Below, piece by piece: positions 3,711-25,894 of a stretch of 64,000 nt of DNA. Made by a program: the position numbers and the translations under genes. Within the stretch, counting starts at the first letter, position 1, and every line of letters starts with the position of its first letter. Source of the DNA: Romanomermis culicivorax (lineage: Eukaryota > Nematoda > Enoplea > Mermithida > Mermithidae); contig CAWUHX010000247.1 in assembly GCA_963922205.1 (NCBI GenBank), forward strand, positions 124,001 to 188,000. The letters are read 5' to 3'. Below the pieces are notes generated by a model. That model had not been told where the DNA came from and did no database searches. It was given only the letters and a program-made list of their open reading frames with translations.

Positions 3711-5129
3711 AATATTGCCAGATGAGCGATTGGTCCGGCAAGTTTGCATCAATTAGTATGAACCCTTTTCGCCCCATTGCACAATGGGCATTCAAATTTT
3801 GCCCACGTTATTGTGTGCTATTTTTTTTCACTGCGGACCAATGTAAATTTGCGTGTGCTTCATTTTTCCTGTGTAAATGGTTGGGCCTTTGACCGGCTAG
3901 TTATTCATTCATTTTTGTCTCATTCCGCCATCTCTCCATCTTTATTGACTGTCCTTTGTTTAAAATAAATTGTGTATATTGGCCATCATAACAGATACCT
4001 CATTAACCTTGTACATATGAGCCACCAGTAGAAGATAAACATACTAACCCACACAGCATTGAGTGAAGGTAACAATCCCTAAATTGATAGGCGAGTGCAG
4101 TCTAGGTTTCAACAGTTGAAATTCAAGGACGATTGAGGGAAGAACCTCAAACCTATAACATTATGCTCTCCATTAACTGGTCACTTTCCTTATGCAAATC
4201 CGAACATCATATCATTAAAGACGGTAAGACACTTCACATGCCACATGCCAAATCTCTTCTGCTACATGCATTCTACATTTCCTCATCATCATAACTTCGC
4301 TGACCAATGATCACATAGATTAGGGGTGTGCACAGGATTTAGAAACTTGTCCGCTTCACACCTGCATTACCTTGTCACCATGCGCACACACTGTCATCGT
4401 GCCTTTTCCTCTGAACACGTAGACTCGATGTTTCACAAACAAGTCATGGCCCCACACCTTGCAAATGTGTCATCAGGCACTGCTGCGTTCACACAGGCGA
4501 TGCAGGGCTGTTCTCGGGGATGGACATAGTCTATCTCATGGTTGCGAAGAAATAGCCAAAGTCGATGCAATTCGTGTCGACGCCGATTTGCATTGTTTGT
4601 TGTTTTTATAAAGTAAAATTGGCGGCCAGACCAGCCATATATTATATTGATTTTATTATTGTATATTGTGGAGTTTATTCGCCCAATTACAACGTCCCCC
4701 GCCTTTACAATTATTATCGACCTTGCAGTGGAGGGAACACAAGTTAGACCCCGGATCTCAGGAGAACCACCCAGCGTGCAAGTCTACATTTGCAACTCAA
4801 TTCTCGGCCTGACTTCTAGGTTTGTCCCTGATTCGAAGTTACTTGAGCTCAGAGTGTTTTTATAATCTGTTGTTTTTATAATCTGTCTTTAACTTATAAT
4901 CTATTTTTTATAAAATGCTTCCAAATAATGCATCTGGAAAGCAAGTACTATTTTACATTTTCAGCATTTTCTACCAAGCTGTTCGTCGTATGGAGCTTAA
5001 ATTTGGTGACGATACTCAACTAACACTTAGAAATTTTTTGAGTGAAAAAATGTAGAGTATAAGCTTCATGTGCAGGATTTTCAAGTCACCTAATATTTGT
5101 GTCATTTTTCGTTTTATTAGCATTTTATA
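3711..5129. other. Intergenic, no gene recognised
   Basis: AT-rich sequence between the LTR of family A and a gag fossil. Only short ORFs without family resemblance were seen. The stretch 4730-4860 is less AT-rich but gave no recognisable protein. Confidence 0.5.
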
Positions 5130-6265
5130 AAAAGCAGACTATATCAATTAGAACTGCAGAAAGACATAGCAAAATTCAAAAATTGGTATGATCTTTTGCA
5201 AGCAGTCCATGAGATAGAGCTAATGTACAGGAATGCAATGAGAACATTTGGGCCAAGAGAACAGCCCACGATGATAAATATGGCACAAACGGAAATTGCT
5301 GAGGAGCAGCAAGCCGATGTGAATGTAATCCAAAGGCCTTATAAAAGCACCCAAAAACGCAATAAGGACTTTAGGAGACCAAACACAAAAAGGCAAACTT
5401 CGATGTAATCTTCGCAAAATCAATTAATAAATATAGCAGATGAGGAAGTACTTGAATTACCTCCACAGCAGGCCATAATGCCTCGACAACAGCCTGTTGA
5501 GGAGCACAAAAAGGACTCTCTCATGGTGGCTTTATCTAAGGAATTTATTAAAATGGCACAATGTTATGAAGAAATTAGGAACTCTGCCAAAGCCCAAGAG
5601 GAAGCCATAACTGCTTTAACTCAGAAAGTTGATAAAGTGAAAATAAAAAGTCAACAAGAGGTTCAGCAGCAGCGAAAATGGTGTACTTACCATGAAAATA
5701 ACACCCAAAACACGATTGATTGTTGGACCTTGAATTTTTATAAGGGCCTACAAAATCGTGGAAGGAGTGGAAATAGTGGAAGAGGTTTTAGAAGAGGTAA
5801 TCCTAGAAGAAGTCTTGGAAATTTCCGAGGTAGGGGAAATTTCAGAGGTAATTTCAGAGAAAATTACAGAGGAAATAGAGGAGGTTTTGGTAACAAAGGT
5901 GAAAGGGGAGCTTATCAAGTTTTGTTTCCTGAGTAGGAGGCAGAAAGTTTGCAAGAATATGCGGAATTCCAGGAATACGTAAAGTTGAAGAAGCTCAGTG
6001 AGCAGATGAGGTTGTTACAGGCTACCACCCAGCCGATGTTACCAGGACCAAATCTAATGGACCAACAACCAGTAGTCATAAATCAGAGTTCAAATACTGT
6101 ATTGACCCTGCAGAAGGTAGTTAGTCAGTGGCAAGCCTCCAGGCAGACAGACCAACCATCGACTAGTGGTGTTAATAGTGTACAGCAAGAACCAATGATG
6201 GAGATGAAGTTGTGTGGTTTACATAATTGTGCCATGGAAAGTCGACCCAGAGAGAGTACTACATA
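5130..6265 (+). pseudogene. Decayed gag fragment related to the Ty3/gypsy element at 14-26 kb
   Basis: The translated plus strand matches the Gag of the large gypsy-type element in order. A segment at ~5144-5250 (FKNWYDLLQAVHEIE) matches its TWHDLAEDVHKID region. AKAQEEAITALTQKV-type coiled sequence and a knuckle at ~5680 follow, then an Arg/Gly-rich tail of GNFRG repeats. The last part, near 6150-6240, contains PSTSG-VNSV and matches the same motif in the larger element. A TAA at 5406, a second stop at 5934 and a frame change near 5945 break the frame. In the knuckle the second His is replaced by Gln (CTYHENNTQNTIDC). No LTRs were found around it, so it is an orphan fragment of a related family. 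Confidence 0.75.
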
Positions 6266-7667
6266 GCTATAAACTGTTTTTTCTGCACAATGCAGGATAG
6301 CCAAAAAAAGTTTTTGCATTGTGGTTTTCTCCTGCTGTCACAGTTTTGCCCCGTGCCTTTTCTCCCAATTGAGAAAAATATCGAAAAAATTTTCAGATTT
6401 TCTCAAAGTCGTTTTTCGGTTAAAACCCTAAAGTTATCCTAAATTTTTTTCGGAAAAACAATAAAAAAACCTAGATTTGGGTGAGAAGACCTGAACCTGG
6501 CACTACTGGTTGGCAACACTTTCTAAATTGGAAAAAATTATCCGCCTGCTACGTTACAATATGCAGTGAAGGCATCAAGTTAAAATGATAGTTCTTTAAG
6601 CTACTAGTCAAAAAAGTATGCAGGAGGAATGTCTTTTTGTGGCGAGAAATGCAGCCGGGAAGAAATTTCCATTATCCCGTCTGCTTCCATTCTGCTTCCG
6701 AAAAATCCATCCTGTTCCCGCCTGCATTCTACCCTGGGAACGCCAGAAAAGTGGTTGATAGCGGGAACGGCATACCATGCACACACCTGACATAAATTGC
6801 CTTTTCATTGAAAATCATGGAAATTATATGTGAATGAGCCGCCTTTCAGGAGATATTCTAGTAACACATGTGACCCCTGGTCACTGAAATGAATTTTTTT
6901 CAACAATATGAAATTAAGTGACCATCTTAAGAAACGATTATTTTCTCATTAAAGCAAAAATATGGACAAAAAAGCAAAATTTCAGACGGTTCGAGGAGGA
7001 AAATATAGGAATATAGTTAGGCTGTGGAAATAGAGGAAAATAGAATAGGGAAATAGTTTCAAACTCGAAATTGCAGCAGCATAATTCATTGCTGAATCCG
7101 TCTTGGTCTACTGTAGCTTAATCATTATTAGTATGATAACTATGAAAATCGTCTTGAAAATATTTTTCCTTAGCATTATCATTTTTGTACATATACGTTG
7201 TAAAAATGAACTTTTTTTGTTTTATCAGGAATTAAATAAATATCGTAATAACGAGGAAAACGACCTTACTCAACAAATTCCATCAATGATGAAATTTGAA
7301 ATGGAATTTTAGTTGAATGCCATTTTTCAGAATCAATTGACAGGTTGAAGTCCTCTGTCACACTGAGCTCAGGGAAAGTTCACCTAGAAATTGAAAGATA
7401 TTGTAGCCTTGTACAATGTGCTGTTTTTCCTTTTTATTTTTCTGTATATTTGTTCTGCATGTGTGGTCGTGTTGTAGTGCCAGTTTTTCGCCAGGGCGTT
7501 TTGCGAGCATAAATTATTTACATAAATGAATATTAATTTTTTGTGTGATAAATATAAAATTTTAGATCAGTTTGAGTAAAAGTAACAAGAGCCCAATGGT
7601 AAATTAGTATATTGGCAAGTTAGGCACTAAAAAACCACACTACATTACGTCTCCCAAAAAATTCTGA
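6266..7667. other. Intergenic, no gene recognised
   Basis: AT-rich DNA between the gag fossil and the protease gene. Short ORFs here (for example 7103-7312) are low-complexity and lack any family resemblance. Confidence 0.5.
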
Positions 7668-7696: not shown

Positions 7697-9011
7697 TTAC
7701 AAACGTGTCACTGTTTTGTTTTTCAAATCTTTTATGACAGAGGCTGCTTTTTCTAACCAATCCATTAGGCTAGAAACGTTCGTAAAAACTGGTGGATATT
7801 CAGAATCGCAACTGAAAACGTAGCTTGCAACACGATAAATTACTTGAACCAATTGGCCATTAATCCTTTCTGGACAAAACAATGGACCACCGGAGTCTCC
7901 CTGAAACATTTCTAAAAAGTCGACCGAAAAATTTAATTATTAACAGTAATTACATTGCACACAGAAACCATGCGGCCATCTCTATTAGCTGCAGCACAAA
8001 AAACTCGTTTCTTTGCATATGTCTCAATTTCGCTGTGGTCTCCAACCTTATGGAAACTGCGACACTTTTCAGCCGTAAATGTTTCAACATTGATTTCGTT
8101 TAAAATATTGGGATCTCCAGCTACATCTGAAATTAAATGTAAACAAGTAAAAAATGAGTTGTACCAACTCGAATAAATTGTCCTCATTTGTTACTAGATT
8201 AGCCGGGAGAAAATGGGGTAGCAGAACATTGCCATTCGTATCGACATAGACCAAGCTATGAAAATACCGCTATATAGGCAAACTTACCTGTGGCACCCCA
8301 GCCAATAGCCATGCATTGTGTGGGTTCACTTGGGAAACTATTTAGCGATGGTAAAGCTATCGGTCCCATATAACTATTAAATTTTACAGCTCTCTTCATC
8401 TGCACCAAGGCGATGTCACTCCAGCCACCTTTTCCATTCTCGAAATCCTTGTGAACAATAGCTTTAGCTAATGGAATATCATTTTCCACGTCTTGCGCCA
8501 TGTCCGATCTGTAGGCGCCGAGTCGGGCCACTGTGTCAGCTAGAACACCAGTTTTGATATTTCTGAAAATAAATGCCAATTTTTTAGACCACTTATTAGA
8601 AACAAACGCAAATTGAGAGCACTTGTCCAGTTGTTCAGTTGGTTAGAGCGTGTGGATGGTAGTGGCTTTTTTGGGTTCAAGCCCCGGACTGAGCCTAACT
8701 TCTGTTGAAAACACAAACAATAGGGACAGGTTGCCTCAAAATTATGAAACATATTTCATGGTGAGTAAAACATTACTGTATACAATGGGCTGCCGTCAGG
8801 AGGAAACTGGATGACATTGACTTTCCATTGGAAAGATTTTCATTGATCAATGATGCTCCGCAACCACTAATTTTGGTCATCCAAGGATACTCGAACATTT
8901 TGCTGCCTTCTCCTTTGATAATTCGAGACCGAGACTTCAATCGGGGCCATGTGCCCGCAGGCAGTGGTTTTGCATATGGATCCGCCCTGGGCTTGTGACT
9001 TGGAGGATGAG
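7697..9011 (-). CDS. Trypsin-like (S1A) serine protease, active triad intact, 5' exon missing
   Basis: Four exons join with consistent phases: 9011-8777, 8562-8288, 8126-7954 and 7900-7697, all GT-AG. Exon 1 of this set carries the activation site (SR then IIKG), YPWM, CGASLI and the His motif LLTAAHC. Exon 2 carries the Asp motif WSDIALVQ, and exon 4 opens with GDSGGP. All three catalytic residues are present. Two residues before the conserved Cys of the Ser loop is a Ser (VSVCNGDSGG), the primary-pocket position, so trypsin-type Arg/Lys preference is unlikely and a chymotrypsin-like pocket is inferred. The first exon found starts in phase 1, so an upstream exon with a signal peptide must exist; I could not locate it in 9014-9760. 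The gene sits 750 bp downstream of a catalytically dead homologue on the same strand. Extracellular action is inferred from the family. Confidence 0.88.
8600..8745 (+). repeat. tRNA-Thr-derived SINE inside a protease intron (antisense)
   Basis: The intron at 8563-8776 contains a tRNA-like stretch (about 8624-8697) with an A-box-like TTGGTTAGAGCGTG, a B box GGGTTCAAGCCCC and the anticodon loop ATGGTAG (GGT). The following ~45 nt (GCCTAACTT ... GGACAGGTTGCCTCAAA) also match the copy at 40.99-41.14 kb, so the repeated unit is longer than the tRNA. The acceptor stem is poorly paired, so this is a decayed copy. Confidence 0.6.
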
Positions 9012-9187
9012 CTATAATAAAAGAAGATTTTCATGGAATATATTGTTACATATTCTTATGGATATGTGGTGTAAACAGTGAAATTCACAAAACAGCTGTT
9101 GCATCTCTCTCGCCTTTTTATGATCCTGCGTATGTCCTCCGCAAATGTTGCCCCATACATAAACTTGTGTTTTTGTCTCTGCTTATT

Positions 9188-9763: not shown

Positions 9764-11968
9764 CTAAATGAGTCTGGATATGCTCTCACATTTTTTTCCT
9801 GTCTCAAAAGTTAAATGCTGCATAGGAAAGCCATAATCTTCGCCTCTCCATAAGCCGACAAAATCGACCTGCTTGTTGGCCGTCGCCAGCAATACACACC
9901 AATGGTTGCCGTCCACATAGTTGACGGCATAGCAAAGTTTCATTCGCAAACAAAGCAACATACAATGGTGGTTCGATTCAGCAGTGCCGTAGCCAATCAC
10001 GTCAGCAAAATGGAATCCACCTTCACCTTTAATTTCAACATCTAATAAATTCGAGCCGCTTATAGCCAATCGTGGTTTTTTGATTGACTCAAGATCATAG
10101 TGCAAAGGTGCTTTGAATAATTGACCAAACTTTAGAATCAGTTTTCCTGCTTCATCGTCCGATGCATTCTGAAAATAAAATGTGTCTTTTGTATTCTCCG
10201 CCCCGTTTAACATTCCAGTTGAACAATCTTACACCCACTGGCGGCCATAGCAATGCCGTCCTTAACAGATGATCCTTTGGAATCTTTTTGGTTGTTCCCA
10301 TTTGGCGCATAACCTCTTTTATCCAAAAGTTGAGCACATCGTCAATTCTAGTGTGTACAAATTGTGCCTGACTGCATCGGCTATCATCAATCTGTAGGCC
10401 ATATAGCACCCAATTGGTTCCGTCTGACTTGGATTTGGATATGCTACATACCAAAGCGCTACCAGTTTTTAGCTGAAATCATATTCTGACGTCTACAACA
10501 TTGTTCAAATTTTGATATTCGTAGCAGTTAAATCAGTCTATTCAAGGTTGTGTAGAAAAGATACACCATGCAATAAGTGTAGCGCTGACAAAGATCATTG
10601 TAGAAATGGTGCTGTGCTTGAGATTTGAGAAAGGTGTAGAGAAGCAATGGAAAGCTAACTTTTCTGAACATAAGCCATTAAAAATGCAAAATTGGGAAAA
10701 ACTATATCAAAAATACGAATTTTTGAAAAAAATGATGAGGGTTGTCTTTTCGGCATAAAGAACTGTGTACAAATTGTATTCAAATAATTTGTTGACAAAA
10801 ATCAGAAATAACATTTCTCGACTAGTGTGAGTATGTTGACTAAAAGACAGGAAAACCACCAAAAAACAAAAAACCACAAAATTAGTAAAATTGCGAAAAA
10901 ACAAGGTGGAACTAAAACAGCAAAATTATTGTGGAAAGAGCAATATTCTCTACATAGATGTGAAAGTTCTAAAATTAAAGCCTCGACCAACGCTCTTTGT
11001 ATCACTCTGCACAGTGCTCTGCTTATTGAAACTGGCGTATTTTTTCTGCACCTATGAATAAGCCCACTAAACTACTATTGTTGAACCTTGCAATCAGGTT
11101 TATTGGCTGTAAGACACATCTTATGACTTTGATTGAAATTTGCGTCAATTCCTGTCCCGCATGCTCCGTCGAATGATGTTGATTTCAAATTAACAACAGT
11201 AAATTTCTCTGCTGAAATAGGTTAGCACTGAACAAACATTATTTTTAAAAAAAATCATAATTTTCAACCTCACATTGCTCTTTCGACCATCCAATCACTT
11301 TGCACCATTTTGAATCGGGTAAAACTGATTTCGTAGGTAAAGTAATTGGACGAATTTTTGTATCAAACATGATTGGCTTTTCCAGCATTATGATAGCTAT
11401 ATTGACAGCATCATTATTCGAAGAATACACAATGGTTTTTCGTTGAGATAAATGCATTCCCGATATTTTGATATCCACTGAATCTTGACTTTTGTTTAGT
11501 AAAAACACACTGTATCTATAACTGCAAGTATAAAATTTGGACAATCTTACCCATGAACGCAAGTTTTAGGAGTGACCAAAAATTTGGAGCTGATGCTTTG
11601 TTTTTTCGTCGATTTACCGAAAATGCGATAATCGGGCAATAAAATCCCATTGCAGTTTGTATTCACAATAACCACCAATGGAAACTTAGATACTATGTCT
11701 TTGGGCTTAACAGCCTGGCCTGTTCATGTTGAATTTTTCAAAAGTGACAAGAACTATATCAAAACATGTAACAACACCTGCTCAGTTACTTTTTTGTGTT
11801 TGAATCAATCGACCATTGTTAAACTGAAAGTGAAAAAATTATAATATATGAGGATGCAAGATGATACCATATCTTCCATAAGCTGACAAATCTTACTGTT
11901 CCATGAGTCTGATCAAATACAGAAGCTAAAAACATACAGTATACCAAAGATAGAATATATTCCGGCAT
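9764..11968 (-). CDS. Secreted serine-protease homologue, catalytically dead, with cysteine-rich tail
   Basis: Six exons, 11968-11897, 11714-11551, 11521-11274, 11211-11087, 10472-10233 and 10168-9764, give 1254 nt (417 aa) in a continuous frame. Exon 1 is a 24-residue signal peptide starting at MPEYILSLVYCMFLAS. The S1A fold is recognisable: FPLVVIV, a Cys pair around the former His site, GW, and a Ser loop. The triad is gone: TAAHC is replaced by TPKTC (His to Thr), DIAL by NIAI (Asp to Asn), and CxGDSGGPL by CKLKTGSAL (Ser to Thr, preceding Asp to Lys). The last exon adds ~135 residues with a C-x3-C-x5-C...C pattern (CMLLCLRMKLC) resembling a PAN/apple domain. It should be a non-enzymatic extracellular binding or regulatory protein. 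Intron 2 is only 29 nt. It probably arose by duplication with the neighbouring active protease. Confidence 0.85.
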
Positions 11969-13200: not shown

Positions 13201-14003
13201 ATTATTACACACTATACCACTTGCTGTAGAGCCCTGCATAGACTGGAGTTTGTCTCCTTGTATTATCCAGGTTTGGAAGCACGACTTCAATATGAAACAT
13301 CAAGTATACAGGTTTAAAGTAAATTGTAAAATCTGCACTCCTTATGCATGGTCACAACTCCAAAGTTGCATTGTTTCATAATAAGAGTATTATTTCATAA
13401 TAAGAGTATTATTTCATAATAAGAATAATGATATGAAATAAGCAAAAAAACGAGAAAAGTCTATGCTAACTCAGCAGTGTAGAGTGAAAAATAATGCCAT
13501 GTGTAAAACGCACTCACTTAGAAAGGTGGTGCTTGTATATCAACAGTTTTGGTCATCCACACTAAAAAAAAGTAGAAAACTCTGTATGAAGCTCAGTCTT
13601 ACTGTATTCTAATGCAAAATAGCTGAAAATGCAACAGCGCAGCAACTTTTTTTGTGAATGAACAATTTATTATTTTGAGAAATGGAAAACAGTAAAAAAT
13701 CGATCAGTTTAATTAAAAATTATTTTGATAAAGGTGGTCTTACAGTATTTCTAAACACAAAAAATCAAGATGATGTTTATTCGAGGCCTAAGTGTGGCTG
13801 ACTACTCTCTTGTGACGCAAATTTGAGCTATTCCAAACCCCTTAGTTGGACTTTTCCCTGCACTTTAGTTTTCTTTTCTCCTTATCTTTTAGTTTTTCTA
13901 ACAAATATCTTATGAATAAATTAATTTTTCTGTCTTTCAAAATTTTTTCAATAACATGCTACATTGATGTGGTTTCATTGTTATAGTCGAGAGTATATTA
14001 TCT
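13201..14003. other. Spacer between hAT element and gypsy element
   Basis: AT-rich sequence without a gene. A short direct repeat (TTTCATAATAAGAGTATTA, about three times) occurs at 13375-13430. Confidence 0.5.
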
Positions 14004-14607
14004 TGTTATGTTTACTTCTCTGCTTAGGTCAAAAGACGTCAGCAATATAACTCGAGTCCTATTGGCTTGTACTCAATCGACTACTGCAGGTCACTCAATG
14101 GAGCTTCCTATTAGCAATCAACTAAACACAGTGCAACAGTTCTTAAGCAGAAATAAACACAACCTTCAGTCACTAATAAGTAACTGGAAACTCTAACTCT
14201 TGCAATCGAAGGGCACTCAGGGTCTCCCCAGATGCCTCCTAAAGGTCTACACAAACAACGAGAACTCACTACAACAATGTCCAAAGGAGCTGGGGCTTTA
14301 TCTTGGCTTTGGCTCCCATGTAATGCGGCTCCCCTATCAGCTTAATGCGCAAGTAATGTATAACAATAAAATAATAAATAGTAATAATATTATTATGTAA
14401 ATTTGCATGTCGGGCTGTCGACACTCGCCTTTACTGAGCCTAAAAGAACAATACAATATAAAACGGACGCCACTCGCCCAGGACACACCACAAGTATGAG
14501 AATGAATGAATGACCAACATTTCTCTTTTTGGTCGAATTGTAACTTTGTTGATTCACCAATTTTGCATAGATGTGGGATTGCTACTGCCGTAAGCACATC
14601 CCCAACA
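14004..14607 (-). repeat. 3' LTR of the gypsy-type element
   Basis: Matches 25292-25894 over its length with scattered substitutions and small indels. The minus strand just before it (AAGGCCCAAGGGA) is a plausible but weak polypurine tract. Confidence 0.93.
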
Positions 14608-14715
14608 TCCCTTGGGCCTTGAAACTGACCAACGGGAGGTGAAGAAGGAAACCGTGAGCGGGACTTTTACCTTTTACGGTGTGACCTACTACTCGATCCC
14701 AACTTCATAAAAAGA

Positions 14716-17398
14716 TTATGATCCGACCCTGAATAGTGTATGGGTCATAACCATCCTGACCTGACCCCAAAGGGTGTATGGGTCAAGACCACCTCCAACC
14801 TCAAGTCTTTTCACAAGGTTACCCAGGTCTGTCCAATGAGATGCCGAGAATGATCGATCATTGATCCAGCACCTGACAGATTGACGACTCTGTGTGCACT
14901 TGACTTTCCCCTGGCTTCGCCAGCATACCTTGAGGCTCCTAGGTACCTTCCTCCAATATTGATCGTCTCGTCCCATTGAGTGATGTGGAGTCTTTGGTAG
15001 CAGCATCCCAATCCTTTTAGTAATCTGCTCATCCTGGACAATCGGAATTTTTTCCGATTGCGCTTGACTTTCTATGCTGGACAAGTACTGTCTTGCATCC
15101 ATAGATGTTTGTATCACTTGCGGTGTAGGTAAGCCAGGGGCGGTGGCAGCATTTCTGTCTGCAGCTGCGTCACAACTTGTGGTTGTGGTTGCAGCTGCAT
15201 GACAAAAGGTGCTGTCATCGCGGATTCGGCTACTTCGGGGTCAGCGATCAAAATAAACAATATTGGGTCTTCGTCATCAACCTCTTTGCAGCTTTCCTCT
15301 CCCAGGAGGGCGGAATTATCCTCATCCTCACTCTCCAATTCCATGACGTCCTCGTCCACTTGACCTGACCGAACTGTGGGTTCATCATCAGGATCAAGTA
15401 TATCAGATTTCGTCCTGAAATTGGATTGTTTGGTTTCATTACCATATGTATAGGTAACCATAGGTAATTCCGTTGGCAGAGGCCTCGGGAGAATACACTT
15501 CTCAGGAAATTCATATGTATACATCGGATAGTCAGCCAGTATACATCTAATTTGACCCATCTGAAGAGTAGGCGTGTCTGGTGCCAGGCCATATCGCAGC
15601 GAGGGGGTTTTAACTCCAAATTCAGCATAGTAGAATCTGACATAGAAAAAGCAGTTGGCCCAATAATCCTTGTTATGGGTTATATTGTCCTTTGCTTTTT
15701 CTATCGAAATTGGAGAGCCTATTTTGTCCTGCAAGCGCAACCGAATAGGCATAAAGCCAAACCTATTTTGCCAGGTCGTTACCCTTTTGTCTTTTACAGC
15801 ATGTTCGGGTTCCATTGGCGGTAAAGATGCGACTATGCTGAAGTTCTGTAAAACCCTATCGTCAGTCTTCCATGCCATCTTCTTTATTAACTCTGCATCC
15901 TCCTTCGAGTAGGATTTGAGGAAATTATAATTTAATAATTCCCTCAGTATGTAATTGTAGTTCACACGGCTATGAGGCCCGAAAACAAAGAATGGTAGAG
16001 GAATTAAGTTGCATGCCTTTTCCAATGCAGAAAACTTTGTTGAGTCCATAACATGCTCGTAATTCCTCAAGTCCGCCATCCAGTGATCTCTGTCATACTT
16101 AGCCATACCAGTGTCGATTTCCACTGGTTTGTAGCAGTCCGTTCCAAGTTGAAACAATTGAAGCTGCTTCGATCAGTCCTGTCGAGGAGTTTTATTTATG
16201 GCAAGACCGGCTGTTATATACCACACAACATCTACCGGATCCGTCAATTTGAAAAACGAAACCCCTCGCAACATTTCTGTATGCAGTCAGTTTATCACCT
16301 CATTTGTCCTATTGACCTGTTGCTCCATTGTATCCATGTCCTCCGGATCACTTACATCTTCTCACTGATTTACCTTCTTTTTGCTTAGACCAGCTTTTAG
16401 GGCCTTGGGATAAACCCCAGACAGTAAAATGTGGTCCCTAGCTATAGCGGGATTTTTAATATCCGCAGGACACGCATACTCTGGCAGGTCATTATGAAAT
16501 TGCATAGCCCACCTGGGTATTACCTCTTGCCGCATCATGTGGTAAACCTTGAATAACTGCCTCTTTACAATGTCCTTCTCATCTAGGAAGTTTCGATCCT
16601 CGAACCCCGTTAGGTCTTGAGAGTACACCGTATAAAAGCGCAAAGCCAAGGTTTTCACTTGGGCCAGCGACAAAATATCAATGGGGTACGTTGCCATAAC
16701 CCCACTTAATTCACCGCAAAACCCATAGTGAAAAAACCCCAAAAATACGGCAATTGAGTAATAGGCATCTAGGCCAGCATACACAATTTCTGTATCCTGA
16801 ATCTTGGGTGCCAAGAACTTTTCTCCTTTTTCTCGTCCCATTGATATTTGCTGACATCAGCCAAGTAAAATTTGGTGAAAAGTCCTTTTAACCCGAGGTT
16901 TTCAGGACACAATCCTAAATCATGAGCGTGATTGGCCATGGGCCCCATCATCATTCTGACACAAATTTCACAGTCCCAGTATTTTCCAAATCCTTGGAGT
17001 ATACGGGCCTGTATAATTTTCGTCTTGTCATGAGCTGAGGCCACTGACCCCGATCGGTAGACGTTCAAAATTGCAACTAGATCGTCCACAACTTTGAAAC
17101 CAACCAAGAAACGATCCACCGATGAAAGGATTGAAATCAAAAGATCTCATTCCTACAGCTTCAATGTTGTAAGGTGGATGACAAAGCTGGAACCATCTAT
17201 ATGTGTAAATGACACCAGCCTAGCGAACTCTTTCCCTTCCAGGTTCTGGATCGCTACCTTATAAGGTATGATACATACCTCCGTCTACTTGACCTTTTCT
17301 ACGTCGAATCCGACAACACCTAGCCCCCGAAACAGGCTTGTGGCCAATTGCTTCAGGATTGGTTCGAGATTGCCCCCGTGGACCCTTTCTGGCTCCAT
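14716..17398 (-). pseudogene. Broken DEDDy-type 3'-5' exonuclease ORF carried by the gypsy-type element
   Basis: From ATG at 17398 a frame of ~890 codons can be followed through several nonsense codons and two frameshifts (near 16830 and 15120). The N-terminal 250 residues show the order typical of WRN/EXD2/MUT-7-like exonucleases. Motif I is GVVGFDVEKV (near 17305). A beta-strand region around VAIQNL and FVIHLTTL follows. Motif II is FLVGFKVVDDL (near 17095). After LGLKGLFTKFYLAD comes motif III, IVYAGLDAYYSIAVF (near 16770). Thus D, E, D, Y and D are all still present. The following ~500 residues (15114-16841 and 14716-15117) match no family I know; they end in an acidic, Pro/Gln-rich tail. 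It lies between integrase and the 3' LTR, the usual env position. Capture of a host exonuclease or a nested insertion are both possible. Confidence 0.65.
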
Positions 17399-18749
17399 TG
17401 GTCGTTGCAGCCATTAACCCATCGTGCAGGCGAACCATTGTTTGATCTCTCCCATGCAGACCAGACGCTTGATGTTGTAGTCTAAAAATCAAAAAGAATT
17501 TGCCCCTTTCAAAATGAGGCATTAGGCCACCACCACCAATTAAATAATCAAATTTGACTGGCACCAAATTAAGAGAAAGATTTAGTGTGGGGAAAAATAA
17601 ATTAATTAGTGAGGTTAGGTGTCAAAGTCATAAAGTAAGCAGGCCCAGTGGTTAATGCAAATGCTGCACCAATTTTTCAGGAACCTCACATTTGCACCAC
17701 CTCTCGCTTCTCAATGTCGGCCCCCGTCAATTTACCACTTACCCTAGCGATAACTTCACGCCTCGGTGCCAAAATTAAGTAGTGAATAAATAACCAATTA
17801 AGGTTTTAATTAATTCAAGAAATAAATTTAGTAAACCAGGGGCCTTAATAAAACCAAAAAAATGCTTCGGAATCAGATCCAAGGTGAAAACCATTAGATT
17901 TTGGCTTTTTAGGGCCCTAAATCCATTAGGTTTTTTCTTTTCACCTATCCTAACATTTTTAGAAACTTTTCTTCGAACTCGTTTTCCCCTTGGTTGGCCC
18001 ATTCAGAAAATTGAGCATGAAGAAATCATTCCTAAGACACCTAAATGGGCGAATTCGTCCCACATACCAAGAAATAAATTCATAAAAACTTACCGTCGGT
18101 CAAAAAATAACAATTGTTTTGGCAGCATTGCGGTTGGCCCACCTTAACGTGGTCGGCGTGTGCGCAATAATTTCGCGCAAAAGGCGGGAGGCCTAATCTT
18201 GACATTGGAAATCAAATTTTTTGAAAAATTTTTTAATTTTGCGTTGTATCTTCTAAAGTAAACAAAATGTTAAAGAACATTTATCGTTACTTCAATATCA
18301 ATACAATATACGAAATTACCAAAAATAATTTTATCGGGTCCTTGGGCTGGGCGAAAAATTTTGTTCTGAAAGATTTGTGCAGCCTGGAGCACAGAAAAAA
18401 CACGACTTTTGAAATTGAGAATGAAAATTGGCCATAAACCTCCCAAAATGTAACCCAAAAAATTTTAGCATCGGGTGTACAAATTAACAATATTATTCTG
18501 AAAATTTGACCCTTCGCTACACAAATTTAAAAAGTATTAAACGAATATAAATTAGTTAAATAACACAAAAAATAAAAAAAAGGATTATTCACATAAAATA
18601 CACGTATACCGCATTTTCAGCTAAAAATTTTTGGACACAGAAATAACGACCGGATGATCTACGGTCTCGGCAAGATTTCCAGTTGCCTTAACTGGAGTAT
18701 TCCCGAAGACCTGCAACATTTCGTGTTGAGACCATCTGGTACCTCCGTA
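17399..18749 (-). other. Spacer between integrase and the extra ORF
   Basis: AT-rich, with no convincing protein. ORFs at 17775-18002 and 18270-18490 are short and low-complexity. An upstream splice acceptor for a subgenomic message could lie here but none can be singled out. Confidence 0.45.
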
Positions 18750-19417
18750 TCAAAAGTATTTTAGCCTACTTGCCGATAGAACCTGCTTTTTAAGCAGGTT
18801 ATTCCAATGCCCTATTGTGAGCACATTTTCTTTCAATCTTTTATCATTGATGATGATATATGGTCCTTTCCAAGGTAACCCCAGTTTTTTCTGTCTGTCT
18901 ACTTTCAACAGAACCCAATCTTGATTTTTAAAACCAGAAGTTTTAATTTTGTTATCAAAATATTTCTTGCTGACCTTAGCGGCTTTTTGTATATTTTCGG
19001 TGATGCTTTTGTACAAATTTGTAAGATGGGTAGCCAAAACATACTTATAAGCCTCATAGTCATTAGGCATGACTATTCTAAGTGCAGCAGTGAAATTGAT
19101 ACCAAAATTCGCTTCATGCCCCCCAGCAGTGAAAATGGCAAGTGTTTTGTTGCTGCGTGGGGTGTGGCATTATATGCAAACACCACTGCACTCAGGTACC
19201 TTGGCCATTTATTGTTATCCTCAATTGCAACTTTTCACAGCTGCTTTATTAGAGTTTGGTTAAATCTCTCAACCATACCATTACCCTGTGGGTGGTATGC
19301 TGTTGTGAAAATTTTTCTGCACTCAAACAGTTTACAGACTGCTTTCATAAGATCTGAATTAAATCCAGATCCATTATCACTAAGAAGTTTCCTTGGGGTA
19401 CCATGCCTAAAGATCAC
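18750..19417 (-). pseudogene. Integrase catalytic end and C-terminal GPY/F-like module
   Basis: One segment (19235-19417) carries the second Asp (LLSDNGSGFNS) and the catalytic Glu (YHPQGNGMVERFNQ). A further segment (18750-19070) has a basic helix and WKGPYIII, the GPY/F-type module of gypsy integrases. Frame changes lie between the segments. Confidence 0.85.
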
Positions 19418-21006
19418 ATTGGGGTACCATGCCTAAAGATAAAAATCAATATAGCTCCAACCCATTTAGTGAAATAATCCTGAAAGACAATGACATATGG
19501 GTGACGTTCCCTCAAGGGAACAATGTCCACAGACACAATATCGAAGGGACCCTCCCCTATAATGGGTATCATTGGGGATATGGAGCTTTTACTGGGAGTA
19601 GCCACTTGGCAGACAGGACAAAACTTCAACCAATTTCTGACATCTTTTTCAATGCCAGGCCACCAGAACCGCTGTTTGACAATACTCAGAGTTCTTTTGA
19701 ACTCTTGGTGTGTCATTATAATGGCTCCGTGATATTGGTGAAGAATGCTGTCTCTGAGGGAATTTGGGACCACGATCTGATCATGGCCACATCCCTCAGT
19801 TTCCCTATAAAGAACTCCATTATCCTCATAGAATCCACTATGATACTTTGTAGTGCTTTTGACCCCTAATCTTTCCCAAAGTGGGCTAAGATTAGTGTCT
19901 TCTTTTTGCAATTGAGCGATAACCTTTAGATCAATTGAATAATTGATCTTATCATCATCCTTTTCTTCATTTTCTCTTTCCTTCACCTCTTCAGACTCCT
20001 TTTCTCTATTCAGGAAAAGCCAAGCAATGTTTTCAGGATCAGTTGGTACAGATGTACCCTGTTCTTGATTTTGTGCACTCTGATCCTGAAGTTTTGCTTG
20101 TCTTCTAGTTGCGACTGCATCACCTACCATAAGCTTCTGCATTTCATCTCTACTCTGCAATATATCTTTGGTAGTCTGTGCAATGTTGTCCTTTGTTACC
20201 ATCAATTCCTGAATATCCGTCAACTCCTTGGTCTGCTCGGGGACAATTTTTTTATCTCTACTTTCAATTTCTTCGTCTCTTATCCTCTGAAATTGTTGTA
20301 CCAATATTTGGCTTTCAATTTCATTGGTTTGAGTTCCGAAGTTACGAAATTGAATTTTGAAGACATATTCCCATTTTGGTGGGTTCTTGTCCATAGCCTC
20401 TTCGGGTTCATCTTTCCTGGAGAGAAAATCAGCCATTGCCTTTTGCCTACCAGGGACATACTCCAATCTATGATTAAATTGATTTATAATGGAATACCAT
20501 CTTTTCAATTTATCATCGATTTGAGTATTTACTTTCATAGATAAAAGAGGTTTATGATCAGTTTTTATCAATACTTTTTGTCCAAACAAATAGTGCCTGT
20601 AGAGTTTAAGACCACAGACAACCGCTAGGCATTCTCGCACTGTAGCACACAACTTCCTCTCGTCTTCCTTGAGGATTCGGCTGCTATAGGCTATTACCCA
20701 TTGGTCATCTTTAGTCTTCTGATAAAGTACTGCTCCCAGTGCGGTTCCACTGGCATCTGTTTGGAGAATGAACTCCGCAGTTCCATCCAAAACAGGATAC
20801 CGTAGAAATGGCACTGAGGTGAGTGCTTTTTTCAGTTCCTCAAACGCTTGGCGATGTTCCTCTGTTGCTTGGAACTTCTTCTTTCCCGTAGCGGTAAGCT
20901 TATACAACGGTTCTGCAAGATTTGCAAGGTTTGGGATGAATTTCTTACACCCATTGCAGTATCCCCAGAAATCGTTGCATATGCTTAATGCTATTGGGAA
21001 ATTCAA
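19414..21006 (-). pseudogene. RNase H and integrase N-terminal half of the gypsy-type element
   Basis: It begins with the RT-RNase H connection, then RNase H (LQTDASGTALGAVLY, IKTDHKPLLS, RLEYVPGRQKAMADFLSR). A ~110-residue acidic, Gln-rich linker follows. The integrase HHCC zinc-binding part (YHG ... TH ... FCPVCQ) and the first catalytic Asp (IVSVDIVPL) come next. The core is interrupted after KWVGAI by a 22-bp direct duplication and loss of roughly 20 codons. Confidence 0.9.
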
Positions 21007-22285
21007 ATTCGGTAATAGCCTTCACTTTTTTCAGATCTGGTGAGATTCCATTTTCGTCCAGTATGTGTCCAAGAAAATGAACACTTTTTGGAAGAAATTT
21101 GCACTTCTCCAGTTTAAGTGTTAGCTTTGCTTTCCGAAGAGCTTGCAAGACCAATTCTAAATTCTCTAAATGTTCTTCATAAGTCTTGGAGAACACAATG
21201 ATATCATCAATATAAACCAGGCAGATTCTCCAGACTAGACCATGCAACACTCTCTCCATCATTCTCTGAAACTCTGCAGGTGCATTTTTAAGTCCGAAAG
21301 GCATAACTTTGAACTGATATAGGCCTTCCTGACATATAAATGCAGTTTTCTCCTTGCTACTCTCCTCAAGTGGGACTTGCCAATATCCAGACTTTAGATC
21401 CAATGTGGTATAAAATTTGGCATTACCTAGACAATCCAAATAATCATCCATTCTAGGTATAGGGTACCTATCATCCTTAGTAACCTCATTTATACCTCTG
21501 AAATCCACAACTGGTCTCGTGGAACCGTCCTTTTTCCCAACTAGGAAAAGTGGAGCAGCCCACGGTGACCGGCTGGGTTCAATAACTCCTTTATCTAACA
21601 TGTCTTGGACTTGAGCTCTAATCCCTGATCTTTGGTTAATGGGAGCTCTGTAATAATGTTTTGCCACTGGCATTGCATTACCAGTATCAATTTTGCACGT
21701 AAGATACGGTGTTGTAGTTAAGGGATCATTGGGTAAGCTGAAAACATCCCTGTATTTAGACAGTTTTGCTACAGCTGTTTCCTTTAATTCCTCATCGATA
21801 TCAGCCTTGGAGATCATTTTATATAGCGCTTCCCTAAATGCCAATGCATCATGCACGGACATTCTGGGAGTGGCATTAAAATTATCTTCAACACTAAATA
21901 TCCCACAACTCGTACTTTGTACGTCTGATACTCCTGAATTTTCTTGTAATATTGAGTCACAGTAGCCTACAACCTGATTAGGTTGCAGTTGGCATCCGGA
22001 ACCCGTATTATTCGAAATCATCAGAACAAAGTCTTCCCGTTTACCATCAACCAGTGTGCTATCAACTCTGAATTTCTTTTCTTCTTTATTTCCTTCTATG
22101 ACCAAACAATCGAGATCTGTTTTAGACGATCGTTCCCATAATCTTGCCTTAATAAGCACATCAGTTCCGTGTGGTATGTATACTTTCGTACATGATACCA
22201 CTGGCACCACTATACCTAATTGGCAGATCCTGGGGTATTGATCCTCTTCAGGACTTGAATGTACTATAGTTCTTCCCCTATACAA
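20945..22285 (-). pseudogene. Reverse transcriptase of the gypsy-type element
   Basis: Canonical Ty3/gypsy RT order is seen: VVDFRGINEVT, YPIPRMDDYLD, TLDLKSGYWQVPL, MPFGLKNAPAEFQ, the catalytic LVYIDDIIVFS and the thumb with FLGH. The frame breaks at the junction with RNase H: FLGI is followed by a frameshift near 20950, after which the connection continues in the next ORF. The catalytic residues themselves are intact. Confidence 0.93.
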
Positions 22286-23637
22286 TCAATAGCTTGTATA
22301 TGACTCGCGTGATCTTTAGGTACAACACTTATAGCTTTCTCAACTCCATTAAGTTTAATGATACCTTTACCAAAATCTATCATTGCTCCAACATCCGGAT
22401 GTGCTAAGAAATCCGTTCCAATTATGAGATTTTCCTCCGCATTAGGAATGATTATGGCTTCCACCAAGAAAACTCCAAATTCACAATGCATTTTGAACTG
22501 TATGTAACCATGTGCATGTACTACTGCACCATCAGCAACAGTGACTTTTAGTATCTCAGGATATCCGGTATATTCTTCATCAAAAGCTTCCTTAAGAAAC
22601 CATGAAGACATCACCGAACACTGAGCACCAGTATCCACTAGAGCCTTGGTGTTAGTATTACATACGGTCACATTAATGTGGAATGGGAGAGTTCGAGGGA
22701 ATTTAGAAAACCTTAATCGTTCCTCCTGATTAGGAATTATCCCATGCTTGAACGCTTTCGTAACCTTTGAATAATCCTCTTTCATCATGGCACACTTCAA
22801 CACTCCAGGCCATTTCATCTCACTAACACCTTGACCTGTAGTGGCAATGCTATTAACACCTCCAGCAGATCCCAACTCTGTCTGACTGGACGTGGATGGT
22901 TGACTACTGGAAATGGCTTGCACACTTGGGCTCTGGTTACTGATTTGAGCCTGACCTTGAGGGGGAGCTGTGATCATCAGCTGTTGGCTAGGGGCTGGCA
23001 GTTTTGGTGCTATATAGAGTTGCTCATTCCGCAATCTATTCTGGTAATCCATGAATCGTTGATAAGTATCATAATCCATAGTATCACCATAATAACCTAC
23101 GGCATGAGCACCTCTACTGCTCCCGCCAACATATCCTCCTCTAAAGCCTCCAAACTGTTGCCTGAAACCTCTGTTTCCACCATATCGATTATCCCAATTA
23201 CGTCCTTGTGCATTTTTCCATTGAAGGGTTTTACATTCGGACGTGTCATGAGAGTTATTTCTATGGTATCGACAATATGATTTCCTGAACTCGTTTCCAC
23301 CAAGTTTTTGGGGTTTGCCCTTATTAACTTTGGCAGAAATTTCATTCAATTTAGCATCAGTCTTTTGGCTTATCTCCTGATAACACTGAGCCAACTTCAC
23401 AATCTCCTGTGACAACTTTGCTAGAACAGAATCACTGCTAGGTTCCTCAGGCTCTTTTCCCTTTCGGGGAGTAGTAGCCATTTGAGTCCCCTGTGAGTTA
23501 TTCTCTTCTATAGAAGTATCGGAATCCTTCTTTTCTGACACTAGGATCGGGGCTTGCTTCTCTCTCCTTGCTTGCTGTCGCATAGCTTTATTTTGAAACT
23601 GCCTTTGTGGGGCATTGCCAAATTTATTTCTACCGAC
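22264..23637 (-). CDS. Nucleocapsid knuckle and aspartic protease of the gypsy-type element
   Basis: In the same frame as the capsid ORF, separated from it by one TAA. It contains an unusual knuckle CRYHRNNSHDTSEC (CX2HX4HX4C), a Gly/Arg/Tyr-rich tail, a PSTSSQ linker and a retropepsin-like core with the active-site motif VDTGAQCS and a second half with the LIIGTDFL signature. A frame change around 22264-22285 links it to the reverse transcriptase ORF. Confidence 0.85.
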   Translation of the reverse strand, partial: VGRNKFGNAPQRQFQNKAMRQQARREKQAPILVSEKKDSDTSIEENNSQGTQMATTPRKGKEPEEPSSDSVLAKLSQEIVKLAQCYQEISQKTDAKLNEISAKVNKGKPQKLGGNEFRKSYCRYHRNNSHDTSECKTLQWKNAQGRNWDNRYGGNRGFRQQFGGFRGGYVGGSSRGAHAVGYYGDTMDYDTYQRFMDYQNRLRNEQLYIAPKLPAPSQQLMITAPPQGQAQISNQSPSVQAISSSQPSTSSQTELGSAGGVNSIATTGQGVSEMKWPGVLKCAMMKEDYSKVTKAFKHGIIPNQEERLRFSKFPRTLPFHINVTVCNTNTKALVDTGAQCSVMSSWFLKEAFDEEYTGYPEILKVTVADGAVVHAHGYIQFKMHCEFGVFLVEAIIIPNAEENLIIGTDFLAHPDVGAMIDFGKGIIKLNGVEKAISVVPKDHASHIQAIDCIGEEL

Positions 23638-25197
23638 TTAAGCCACTTCAGCTTGCCCTTCACCCATCGTCACCTCATTTATCACAATTGGAGACTCCGG
23701 AGTTCCTCTCTTTTTATAAGCAGCTGTGTTCCGCTTATCAATCTTGTGCACATCCTCTGCTAGATCATGCCATGTTTCATACTTTTCTCTTTGATCTAGC
23801 AACTCCATCTGATACTCTTCAGATGCTTTATACAAAAAGGTATCAATTATGAAACGATCTCTGAACTCTTCGGTCTTATTAGGATATAATCTGTCTACTA
23901 GCACACTTATTCTCTTGAGGAATTTCACTGGAGCTTCATCAAATTCCTGCTTTATGTTCATCAGCTCCCTTGTTTGCATACCGTCATTTGAATCTGGAGC
24001 TTGCACTTTGAGCAACTTTCTTCGGGCTTTTTCGTAACTTTTGAACCTTTTGGCAGTAGCTTTCGGTACACCCTTAGAAAGCGCTCGTAAGGCAGCCAGC
24101 TTTATTTTATCAGTAGTCTCTGAAGTAAACTCTGCCTCTAAATCATTTAGGAAGCTGAGAACCTGTGTCTCAGTCATGTCATCGAGGAGTAGCTTTGGCT
24201 TTACAGCCTTCACTATATCTGACACAGTAGGCTCCAATCCATCCACTGAGGAGTCATCAGAATCTGATGAATTTCCTCGTGTGGACTTTTTGGATCGTTT
24301 GTGCTTCGATGTAGTATGTTTGCTTTCCTTATGACTACCTGCTGCTTCTTCATCAGCCTCTTGGAAAAATTGAGCAACTATATCACTTGCTTGTTCTCGA
24401 ACAGCAAGCGGTTCAGTTACCCATTTTTCCGTAGAAACCTTTGATTTCACAGCAGGTTTGACTGTGAACTTTTGCTCTGACTCATCTGCTTCCATCTGCC
24501 GTAACCTTTGGTCATTGGCAATACAGGTTGCAGACGTCATTGGCAAAGTTCTACACATATCCTGAGTTTGCAATGATCTGTCTGTAGTCCTACTCACTCG
24601 GATATCCCTTTCCTTTTGATCCAGGACGAATCTTTCCAATAGTCCTTGGACTCCGATCATCGAATCGGCCATTTTGTCAATTTTGACATTTAGTCGTCTA
24701 ATTTCGTCGTCCTTTTGACTCATTTCGAATCGTAAGTCGTCCAATGGATCGTGACGGTAATCGTCCTGAATATTATCCAAATTTTCGTTTACGTATTCAC
24801 GATGATACATATCGAATCGCTGTCGAGGTCGTGGAAAACGTTCCTCTCTAAATTGATCAAACGGATCAATATGATCCTCGGCCAATTTCAGCCTTCTATC
24901 AATAGGCGCTAATAATTGAGCATCTCTATCTTCGGCAGTCAATAGTTCCTTTGCCGTGGCCATATTATTGATATTATTAGTGGCCATTATAGGCGCTACG
25001 GAAGTGGGAGCGCTTACTGGGTCCAATTTTACCTCAGCCTGCTGGCTTATGGCACTTGAGTCAAAGCCTTTCCGCTTGCTCGTAGTATTAGATACCACGG
25101 GCAGTGGGAAAGATTTATCCGACTCATCATGCCTTACACCAGGTGGAGTCCTCGGCAAAGTCGTACCAGAGGCTAAATCCTCAGCATTTTTGGACAT
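23638..25197 (-). CDS. Gag, capsid part, of the gypsy-type element
   Basis: About 520 codons from the Met at 25197 to a TAA at 23638-23640. An upstream in-frame region reaches the primer-binding site but has no ATG. The protein has a charged N-terminal region, a KHKRSKKSTRGNSS-type basic/serine stretch, and a capsid-like helical domain (KFLKRISVLVDRLYPNKTEEF ... ETWHDLAEDVHKID) near the end. The reading frame continues unchanged after the TAA into the nucleocapsid and protease ORF. Confidence 0.8.
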   Translation of the reverse strand: MSKNAEDLASGTTLPRTPPGVRHDESDKSFPLPVVSNTTSKRKGFDSSAISQQAEVKLDPVSAPTSVAPIMATNNINNMATAKELLTAEDRDAQLLAPIDRRLKLAEDHIDPFDQFREERFPRPRQRFDMYHREYVNENLDNIQDDYRHDPLDDLRFEMSQKDDEIRRLNVKIDKMADSMIGVQGLLERFVLDQKERDIRVSRTTDRSLQTQDMCRTLPMTSATCIANDQRLRQMEADESEQKFTVKPAVKSKVSTEKWVTEPLAVREQASDIVAQFFQEADEEAAGSHKESKHTTSKHKRSKKSTRGNSSDSDDSSVDGLEPTVSDIVKAVKPKLLLDDMTETQVLSFLNDLEAEFTSETTDKIKLAALRALSKGVPKATAKRFKSYEKARRKLLKVQAPDSNDGMQTRELMNIKQEFDEAPVKFLKRISVLVDRLYPNKTEEFRDRFIIDTFLYKASEEYQMELLDQREKYETWHDLAEDVHKIDKRNTAAYKKRGTPESPIVINEVTMGEGQAEVA

Positions 25198-25270
25198 TTT
25201 GAGCCCTAAGTCTTTGTAAAAACCTTTAGGTTTTGTGACACCTCGAGTGACTCTGCGCTCTTCCGTATTG

Positions 25271-25289
25271 CAAGTGTCAGAAGCCACCA
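25271..25289 (-). other. Candidate primer-binding site of the gypsy-type element
   Basis: Two bases after the 5' LTR the minus strand reads TGGTGGCTTCTGACACTTG, beginning with the expected TGG. The tRNA was not identified. Confidence 0.55.
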
Positions 25290-25291
25290 CT

Positions 25292-25894
25292 TGTTATGTT
25301 TACTTCTCTGCTTAGATCCGAAGATGTCAGCAATATAACTCAAGTCCTATCGGCTTGTACTCAATCGACTACTGTAGGTCACTCAAAGGAGCTTCCTATT
25401 AGCAATCAACTGAACACAGTGCAACAATCCTTAAGCAGAAATAAACACAACCTTCAGTCACTAATTAGCAACTGGAAACTCTAACTCTTGCAATTGAAGG
25501 GCACTCAGGGGCTCCCCAGATGCCTCCTAAAGGTTTACACAAATAAACAGAACTCACTATAATAATATCCAAAAGGACTGGGGCTTCACCTTGGCTTGGC
25601 TGCCGTGTAAGGCGACTCCCTCCAACCGCTCAATGCGCGAGAAATAGTAATAATATAAATAATAAATAATTATTATATTAATAATATGCAAATCTGGTGT
25701 GGGGCTGTTGACGTTTGCCTTTACTAGGCGATACAATACAATTTATATCGGACGCGACTCGCCCACGACACACCAAAATTGCGAAGGTAAACACGAATGA
25801 ATATTTTCTTCCTTTTTGGTGGAATCGTAACTTTGTCGATTCACCAATTTTGCATAGATGTGGGATTGCTACTGCCGTAAGCACATCCCCAACA
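25292..25894 (-). repeat. 5' LTR of the gypsy-type element
   Basis: On the plus strand it starts TGTTATGTTTACTTCTCTGC and ends CACATCCCCAACA. It is highly similar but not identical to the LTR at 14004-14607, indicating an insertion that is not recent. Confidence 0.93.

What the first reader, a model, noticed from the sequence alone, without database searches (positions are those of the whole stretch)
14716..17398. A DEDDy 3'-5' exonuclease ORF inside a Ty3/gypsy-type retrotransposon
Between integrase and the 3' LTR the element carries a ~890-codon broken ORF with all catalytic positions of a DEDDy exonuclease in the right order: GFDVE, VGFKVVDDL and YAGLDAYYS. I know of no described gypsy lineage with such a domain in the env position. 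A captured exonuclease of the WRN/EXD2/MUT-7 type could trim RNA or DNA ends during replication, or interfere with host small-RNA silencing, in which MUT-7 acts in C. elegans. The ~500-residue region after the exonuclease domain matches nothing I recognise.
Basis: partly seen in the sequence, partly recalled or inferred. Interest (0 to 1): 0.87.

Follow-up and report, generated by a model that had tools for sequence, protein, structure and literature searches.

The report
Nematode retrotransposon carrying a DEDDy exonuclease
A jumping gene family in a mosquito-killing roundworm carries, where retroviruses keep their envelope gene, a large extra gene that looks like an RNA- or DNA-trimming enzyme; such cargo had been described from tiny rotifers, so this is a new and lively case of a known but unexplained habit.

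Summary
The window lies in the Romanomermis culicivorax genome. On the minus strand a Ty3/gypsy-type element (LTRs 25894-25290 and 14607-14002) has a broken ORF between integrase and 3' LTR with the DEDDy motifs in order. This copy is damaged and cut short. Other copies are better preserved: 17 of 115 scored copies have an uninterrupted frame of at least 1,355 codons, and the 9 copies whose flanks I fetched keep ORF3 between pol and a 3' LTR. A sister lineage (ORF3 36.5% identical) keeps the five catalytic residues D, E, D, Y, D. The two-lineage profile matches known DEDDy enzymes (hhalign probability 94-96%); without the sister it was 41-54%, and the window's pieces alone gave nothing significant. 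ORF3 is under purifying selection (exonuclease dN/dS 0.07-0.31, 8 comparisons). It seems to be made from a spliced RNA and ends in an RG-rich tail. A second family in the same genome has a clear PF01612 ORF downstream of integrase-like sequence. The claim that no gypsy lineage has such a domain is wrong: bdelloid Juno and Vesta do (PMC5408684). New variant of a known kind; my searches showed no nematode case. Most likely role (inferred): an RNA-bound 3'-5' exonuclease accessory to replication.

The parts
25290..25894 (-). 5' LTR (TGTTGG...ATAACA, then AG)
   Evidence: 511 of 599 ungapped positions identical to the 3' LTR
25271..25289 (-). putative primer binding site TGGTGGCTTCTGACACTTG, the same in the 7 other copies compared
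   Evidence: tRNA not identified
23638..25293 (-). gag frame
   Evidence: 97% identical to copy C33; no Pfam gag hit
22264..23637 (-). protease region; in open copies one frame with gag and pol
   Evidence: PF13975 E 1.5e-7
20945..22285 (-). reverse transcriptase
   Evidence: PF00078 E 1e-40
19414..21021 (-). RNase H and integrase zinc-binding part
   Evidence: PF17917 E 3.3e-28, PF17921 E 1.2e-18
18750..19169 (-). integrase C-terminal part
   Evidence: PF18697 E 3.3e-4, below its cut-off
18094..18205 (-). putative first coding exon of ORF3 with its own ATG, ending at GACG|GTAAGT
   Evidence: same donor in 9 of 9 copies; matches P0002
17482..18093 (-). putative intron (GTAAGT ... TTTTTAG)
   Evidence: P0002 reads across this junction; gene model, no RNA data
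16713..17338 (-). DEDDy exonuclease domain of ORF3 (broken in this copy by stops and a frame change)
   Evidence: domain established on other copies
14716..17481 (-). remnant of the ORF3 last exon; parts from the open copies at about codon 825 (window 15036-15025)
14002..14607 (-). 3' LTR

Best explanation
The feature is ORF3 of a high-copy Ty3/gypsy-type LTR retrotransposon family of Romanomermis culicivorax, seen here as one decayed, truncated copy. Shown by sequence: it sits between pol and 3' LTR in each of 9 copies examined, has an N-terminal DEDDy-type exonuclease-like domain with D62, E64, D136, Y240, D244 (numbering of P0004), continues for about 1,100 residues without a recognised domain but conserved in a sister lineage except for an acidic linker, ends in an RG/Q-rich tail, and has evolved under purifying selection. 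Inferred: it is translated from a spliced subgenomic RNA as retroviral env is, is an active 3'-5' exonuclease, binds RNA through its tail, and works inside the element's RNA-protein particle by trimming 3' ends of RNA or of single-stranded cDNA during replication. It is probably not an envelope protein.
For: Position and linkage: 9 of 9 fetched copies have gag and/or pol upstream and an LTR downstream; an upstream LTR was found in 8 of 9. 4-bp target duplications in 5 of 7 copies tested, and one LTR pair identical at 615 of 617 positions: recent insertion of whole units. 17 of 115 scored copies have an uninterrupted frame of at least 1,355 codons (my count). Domain; the sister lineage hits PF01612 at E 0.0069, under the curated cut-off. 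Catalytic residues identical in the sister. Of 20 loci: E64 in 18 (2 unaligned); D62 in 16 (1 N, 1 Q, 2 unaligned); D136 in 18 (1 N, 1 unaligned); Y240 and D244 in 18 each (1 unaligned; the one differing is the window's own locus, read there in the wrong frame). Selection: exonuclease dN/dS 0.07-0.31 in 8 of 8 comparisons, upper bootstrap limits 0.60 or less. Splicing: GTAAGT donor in 9 of 9 copies, a TTTTTTAG acceptor also in the sister, predicted protein P0002 spans the same junction. Tail: 10 of 12 RG pairs lie in the last 110 residues.
Against: No Pfam or NCBIfam hit to an exonuclease for the family's own ORF3 even in open copies, none in PDB, so the domain is very divergent and activity is not shown. 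Without the sister lineage the profile match is only 41-54% probable. P0002 has K where E64 stands. A hydrophobic stretch at residues 1142-1160 (mean hydropathy 2.16) has a hydrophobic counterpart in the sister (by eye), so a membrane role is not excluded. P0002 and P0003 are gene predictions; no RNA or protein data. Nothing shows the substrate. The dN/dS values all use one reference copy, so they are not independent.
Confidence: 0.55

Rival explanations
1. Counter-defence: ORF3 degrades or trims host small RNAs (or blocks their use) and so shields the element from RNA silencing.
For: DEDDy proteins act in small-RNA pathways (MUT-7, Nibbler recalled; mut-7, Maelstrom and EXD1 in passages of PMC5408684). 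The family is abundant and has young copies.
Against: No data on small RNAs; the RG tail and strict linkage fit a role in the element's own particle equally well.
Confidence: 0.25
2. Catalytically dead RNA-binding protein: the DEDD fold is kept for binding only, as stated for Maelstrom and EXD1 (PMC5408684 passage).
For: Long divergence from known enzymes; E64 replaced in P0002.
Against: All five catalytic residues are identical between two lineages whose domain is 42% identical and kept in nearly all aligned loci.
Confidence: 0.15
3. Envelope substitute: ORF3 helps transfer between cells, as the env position suggests.
For: Env-like position and likely splicing; one hydrophobic stretch.
Against: Enzyme-like domain and RG tail are not env features; only one hydrophobic stretch stood out in a simple hydropathy scan. 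Signal peptides and glycosylation were not tested.
Confidence: 0.06
4. Chance resemblance or a host gene caught in one element copy.
For: Window pieces alone give no significant profile match.
Against: 115 scored copies, a sister lineage with the same ORF3, shuffled controls.
Confidence: 0.02

Closest known systems
Bdelloid rotifer Juno and Vesta LTR retrotransposons with DEDDy ORF3 (Rodriguez, Kenefick and Arkhipova 2017, PMC5408684; abstract and found passages read)
   Same: LTR retrotransposon with an extra ORF downstream of pol coding for a DEDDy exonuclease instead of env; more than one lineage in the genome carries it.
   Different: Nematode host; ORF3 of about 1,390 codons over two putative exons with a conserved downstream region and RG tail; several near-identical open copies. 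I saw no length or sequence of the bdelloid ORF3s, so homology of the two is untested.
Terminons / Athena Penelope-like elements of bdelloids (PMC6431247, passages read)
   Same: Retroelements carrying a DEDDy 3'-exonuclease as accessory function.
   Different: Not LTR elements; giant and telomeric.
Second family (ORF3b) of the same genome, e.g. L053, L046
   Same: An ORF with a DEDDy domain downstream of integrase-like sequence.
   Different: 608-614 codons where longest; clear PF01612 match (E 1.4e-10 and 1.7e-13 in the 2 tested); no similarity to this ORF3 at E 1e-3 by tblastn in 10 loci.
Cellular DEDDy exonucleases WRN, EXD2, MUT-7 homologues, RNase D, NrnC
   Same: Order and identity of the catalytic residues.
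   Different: Too divergent for Pfam or PDB sequence search to find from this family.

Membership tests
DEDDy 3'-5' exonuclease (PF01612 superfamily) | D-x-E, D, and Y-x3-D in order | tested here: met
   Aligned on the matching WRN residues; identical in the sister; kept in 16-18 of 20 loci
DEDDy 3'-5' exonuclease (PF01612 superfamily) | PF01612 score over the curated cut-off | tested here: not met
   No hit; sister 16.6 bits against 23.6. In one search one of seven matches in frames of 1,232-1,398 codons passes with its neighbours; only the C9 one was read, so that the others are sisters is presumed
DEDDy 3'-5' exonuclease (PF01612 superfamily) | Profile-level similarity beyond shuffled controls | tested here: met
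DEDDy 3'-5' exonuclease (PF01612 superfamily) | RNase H-like fold | tested here: inconclusive
DEDDy 3'-5' exonuclease (PF01612 superfamily) | 3'-5' exonuclease activity | not testable with these tools
   needs the bench
Ty3/gypsy LTR retrotransposon | LTR pair, PR-RT-RH-IN order, short target duplications | tested here: met
   (duplications in 5 of 7 copies; none seen by eye for the window copy)
Ty3/gypsy LTR retrotransposon | RT phylogeny placing it in a named clade | not tested
   no reference set held
Bdelloid-type DEDDy ORF3 element | DEDDy ORF downstream of pol, before 3' LTR | tested here: met
   9 of 9 copies
Bdelloid-type DEDDy ORF3 element | Common descent with Juno/Vesta ORF3 | not tested
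   sequences not held; protein searches returned only R. culicivorax models

The most novel reading that the evidence does not exclude
Mermithid gypsy-type elements have taken up DEDDy exonucleases at least twice and keep them under selection as a spliced, RNA-bound enzyme that meets host RNA silencing or finishes 3' ends in replication: together with bdelloids, a recurring class of enzyme-carrying retrotransposons in invertebrate animals.
Probability: 0.35. Interest if true: 0.75.

Novelty: new variant of a known kind. Interest (0 to 1): 0.62.

Why it matters
The role of DEDDy ORF3s in retroelements has been left open: in bdelloids full-length copies are scarce, activity is undemonstrated, and intragenomic evolution showed no significant departure from neutrality (PMC5408684 passages). 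Here a family with many open copies, clear purifying selection and a sister lineage makes the question testable, in another phylum.

Tried and rejected
Profile tests on the broken window pieces: weak or negative. Single-sequence structure of one piece: useless, pLDDT 35.7. Protein database searches: three R. culicivorax gene models (P0001; P0002 and P0003); one search scored 7,998 candidates and found none. Viral contigs: none. Phages: none. Tree of 21 DEDDy sequences: the two element groups join with support 85/84, but the program warns of long branches, so no origin is claimed. Dating the window copy by its LTRs was rejected: from 25500 to 20701 it is 95-100% identical to young copy C33, from 20700 to the 3' end 82-94%, and 91% in the outer 5' LTR, so it looks mosaic and its LTR divergence is not an age. 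Considered and dropped: that P0002's gag-to-ORF3 junction is the real transcript; open copies have an ATG in the small exon, and the model's first junction is unverified.

Full report
Where this is. Protein hits name Romanomermis culicivorax. The window's genome has 359,112,060 bases in 595 contigs, which agrees with the published R. culicivorax v2 assembly, 359.1 Mb in 595 scaffolds (PMC10879605, passages read). It is a mermithid nematode.

The element. On the minus strand an LTR retrotransposon runs from 25894 to 14002. [quoted passage not shown] The LTRs run TGTTGG...ATAACA here and in 6 of 7 other copies (C338's 5' LTR ends ATAATA); two bases, AG, separate the 5' LTR from a TGG primer site. 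By eye the window copy shows no target duplication.

The observation. From this copy alone the exonuclease claim could not be proved: Pfam, PDB and home-made profiles gave nothing significant; only the YAGLDAYYS piece aligned with the right part of the profile (probability 10.6%, pairwise E 0.0029).

Other copies. Searching the genome with the downstream region gave 115 scored matches of 1,793 candidates, at 85-100% identity (a capped list). By my count of that table 17 of the 115 have a frame of at least 1,355 codons with no stop inside the match. I fetched the flanks of 9 copies in pieces. All 9 have an LTR after ORF3 and gag and/or pol before it; an upstream LTR was found in 8, in one of them (C544) cut by the end of the stretch. 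In 3 of the 9 gag-pol is one open frame of 2,233-2,234 codons. Gaps aside, LTR pairs differ at 2 of 617 positions in C33 up to 35 of 607 in C338; 5 of 7 copies tested show a 4-bp target duplication, C62 and C153 do not (duplications read by eye). Copies lacking ORF3 could not be found by an ORF3 query; that is a limit of the test.

What ORF3 is. Three of the 9 copies have a last-exon frame of 1,356 codons or a little more (C33, C62 1,356; C153 1,365), C349 1,338, the others 765-1,261. Exonuclease domain: residues about 51-262 of P0004. An alignment of 7 loci and P0002 against 16 DEDDy sequences (9 from PDB outputs, 7 bacterial loci) scored 32.8 locally (best of 200 shuffles 24.3; probability 41%) and 28.9 globally (best of 170: 14.7; probability 54%). 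A sister lineage on contig C9, with RNase H-integrase 53% and integrase C-terminal part 65% identical, carries a collinear ORF3 at 36.5% identity; its exonuclease domain is 42% identical, and residues 62, 64, 136, 240 and 244 (D, E, D, Y, D) are the same. With it in the profile the match is 94-96% probable (E 1e-7 local, 4.5e-9 global; 60 shuffles at most 19.0 and 11.3). In the alignment these positions fall on the WRN residues known as D82, E84, D143, Y212 and D216 (numbers recalled). Past the domain come blocks 38%, 36%, 42% and 45% identical to the sister, with an acidic linker at 20% between them, a basic stretch, and a tail with 10 RG pairs in the last 110 residues. Pfam finds nothing there above its cut-offs. 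The window copy parts from the open copies at about codon 825.

Expression. The last exon opens just at TTTTTAG|AC; its first ATG in frame is at codon 23. About 610 bases upstream a small frame begins with ATG and ends at GACG|GTAAGT; the donor is present in 9 of 9 copies, the exact acceptor pattern in 5 of 9 (the other four did not match the pattern), and a TTTTTTAG acceptor in the sister. Predicted protein P0002 reads FLTD-DYNIK across this very junction, and P0003 joins RT sequence to the same acceptor. These are gene models, so splicing is likely but not shown. An env-like spliced RNA is the natural reading.

Selection. Against copy L015, eight chosen copies give exonuclease-domain dN/dS of 0.07 to 0.31, with bootstrap upper limits of 0.60 or less; whole ORF3 0.08-0.28. 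Codons with stops were left out before counting. The window copy's value (0.19) includes its time as a pseudogene.

A second family. PF01612 searched over the genome gave 119 matches, 95 over the cut-off (89 alone, 6 with neighbours; my count). The ten best loci look like one family by eye: a frame of 608-614 codons in 5 of 10, shorter in the rest, with a clear DEDDy domain in the 2 tested. Integrase-like sequence precedes it in 7 of 10 (by eye, and by tblastn in L046 and L050), though Pfam did not call an integrase in the one frame tested (L053). In the one copy read further up, RNase H (E 2.8e-16), zinc-knuckle and, just under its cut-off, integrase zinc-binding domains were found, but no RT hit. 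So the genome holds at least two element families with DEDDy ORFs behind integrase. Whether they share one capture is unresolved.

What is known. [quoted passage not shown] later papers mention them (PMC6431247, PMC5718144, PMC6338049, passages read). The word nematode does not occur in that paper's main text. My searches for nematode cases (listings) showed none, within an open-licence library.

How it likely works. Shown: element-borne, DEDDy-like, selected. Inferred: active, RNA-bound, auxiliary to the replication particle. I put a little over half on a role in trimming the element's own nucleic acids, 0.25 on counter-silencing, 0.15 on a binding-only protein, little on env.

Noticed in passing
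window 14002-25894: The copy looks mosaic: 25500-20701 is 95-100% identical to young copy C33, 20700 to the 3' end 82-94%, and its own LTRs are only 85% alike.
   Followed up: partly
window 5121-6266, + strand: Remnant of a second, related element: frames about 30-37% identical to this element's gag and the region before its protease.
   Followed up: no
L046-L055, L057 (contigs C344, C253, C69 and others): A second retroelement family with a DEDDy ORF of up to 608-614 codons and clear PF01612 match.
   Followed up: partly
P0004 residues 1142-1160; sister L056: A hydrophobic stretch present in both ORF3 lineages; buried helix or membrane anchor not decided.
   Followed up: no
window 30278-34668, - strand: Collagen-like Gly-X-Y gene pieces (by eye).
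   Followed up: no
window 7697-9030 and 11245-11565, - strand: Trypsin-like serine protease pieces by eye (GDSGGP, TAAHC).
   Followed up: no
window 40644-41449: Three tRNA predictions (Thr, Thr, Ser) inside repeats about 81-85% alike: possibly tRNA-derived short repeats.
   Followed up: no
window 59794-61522: Long tandem repeat array with a period of roughly 110-125 bases.
   Followed up: no
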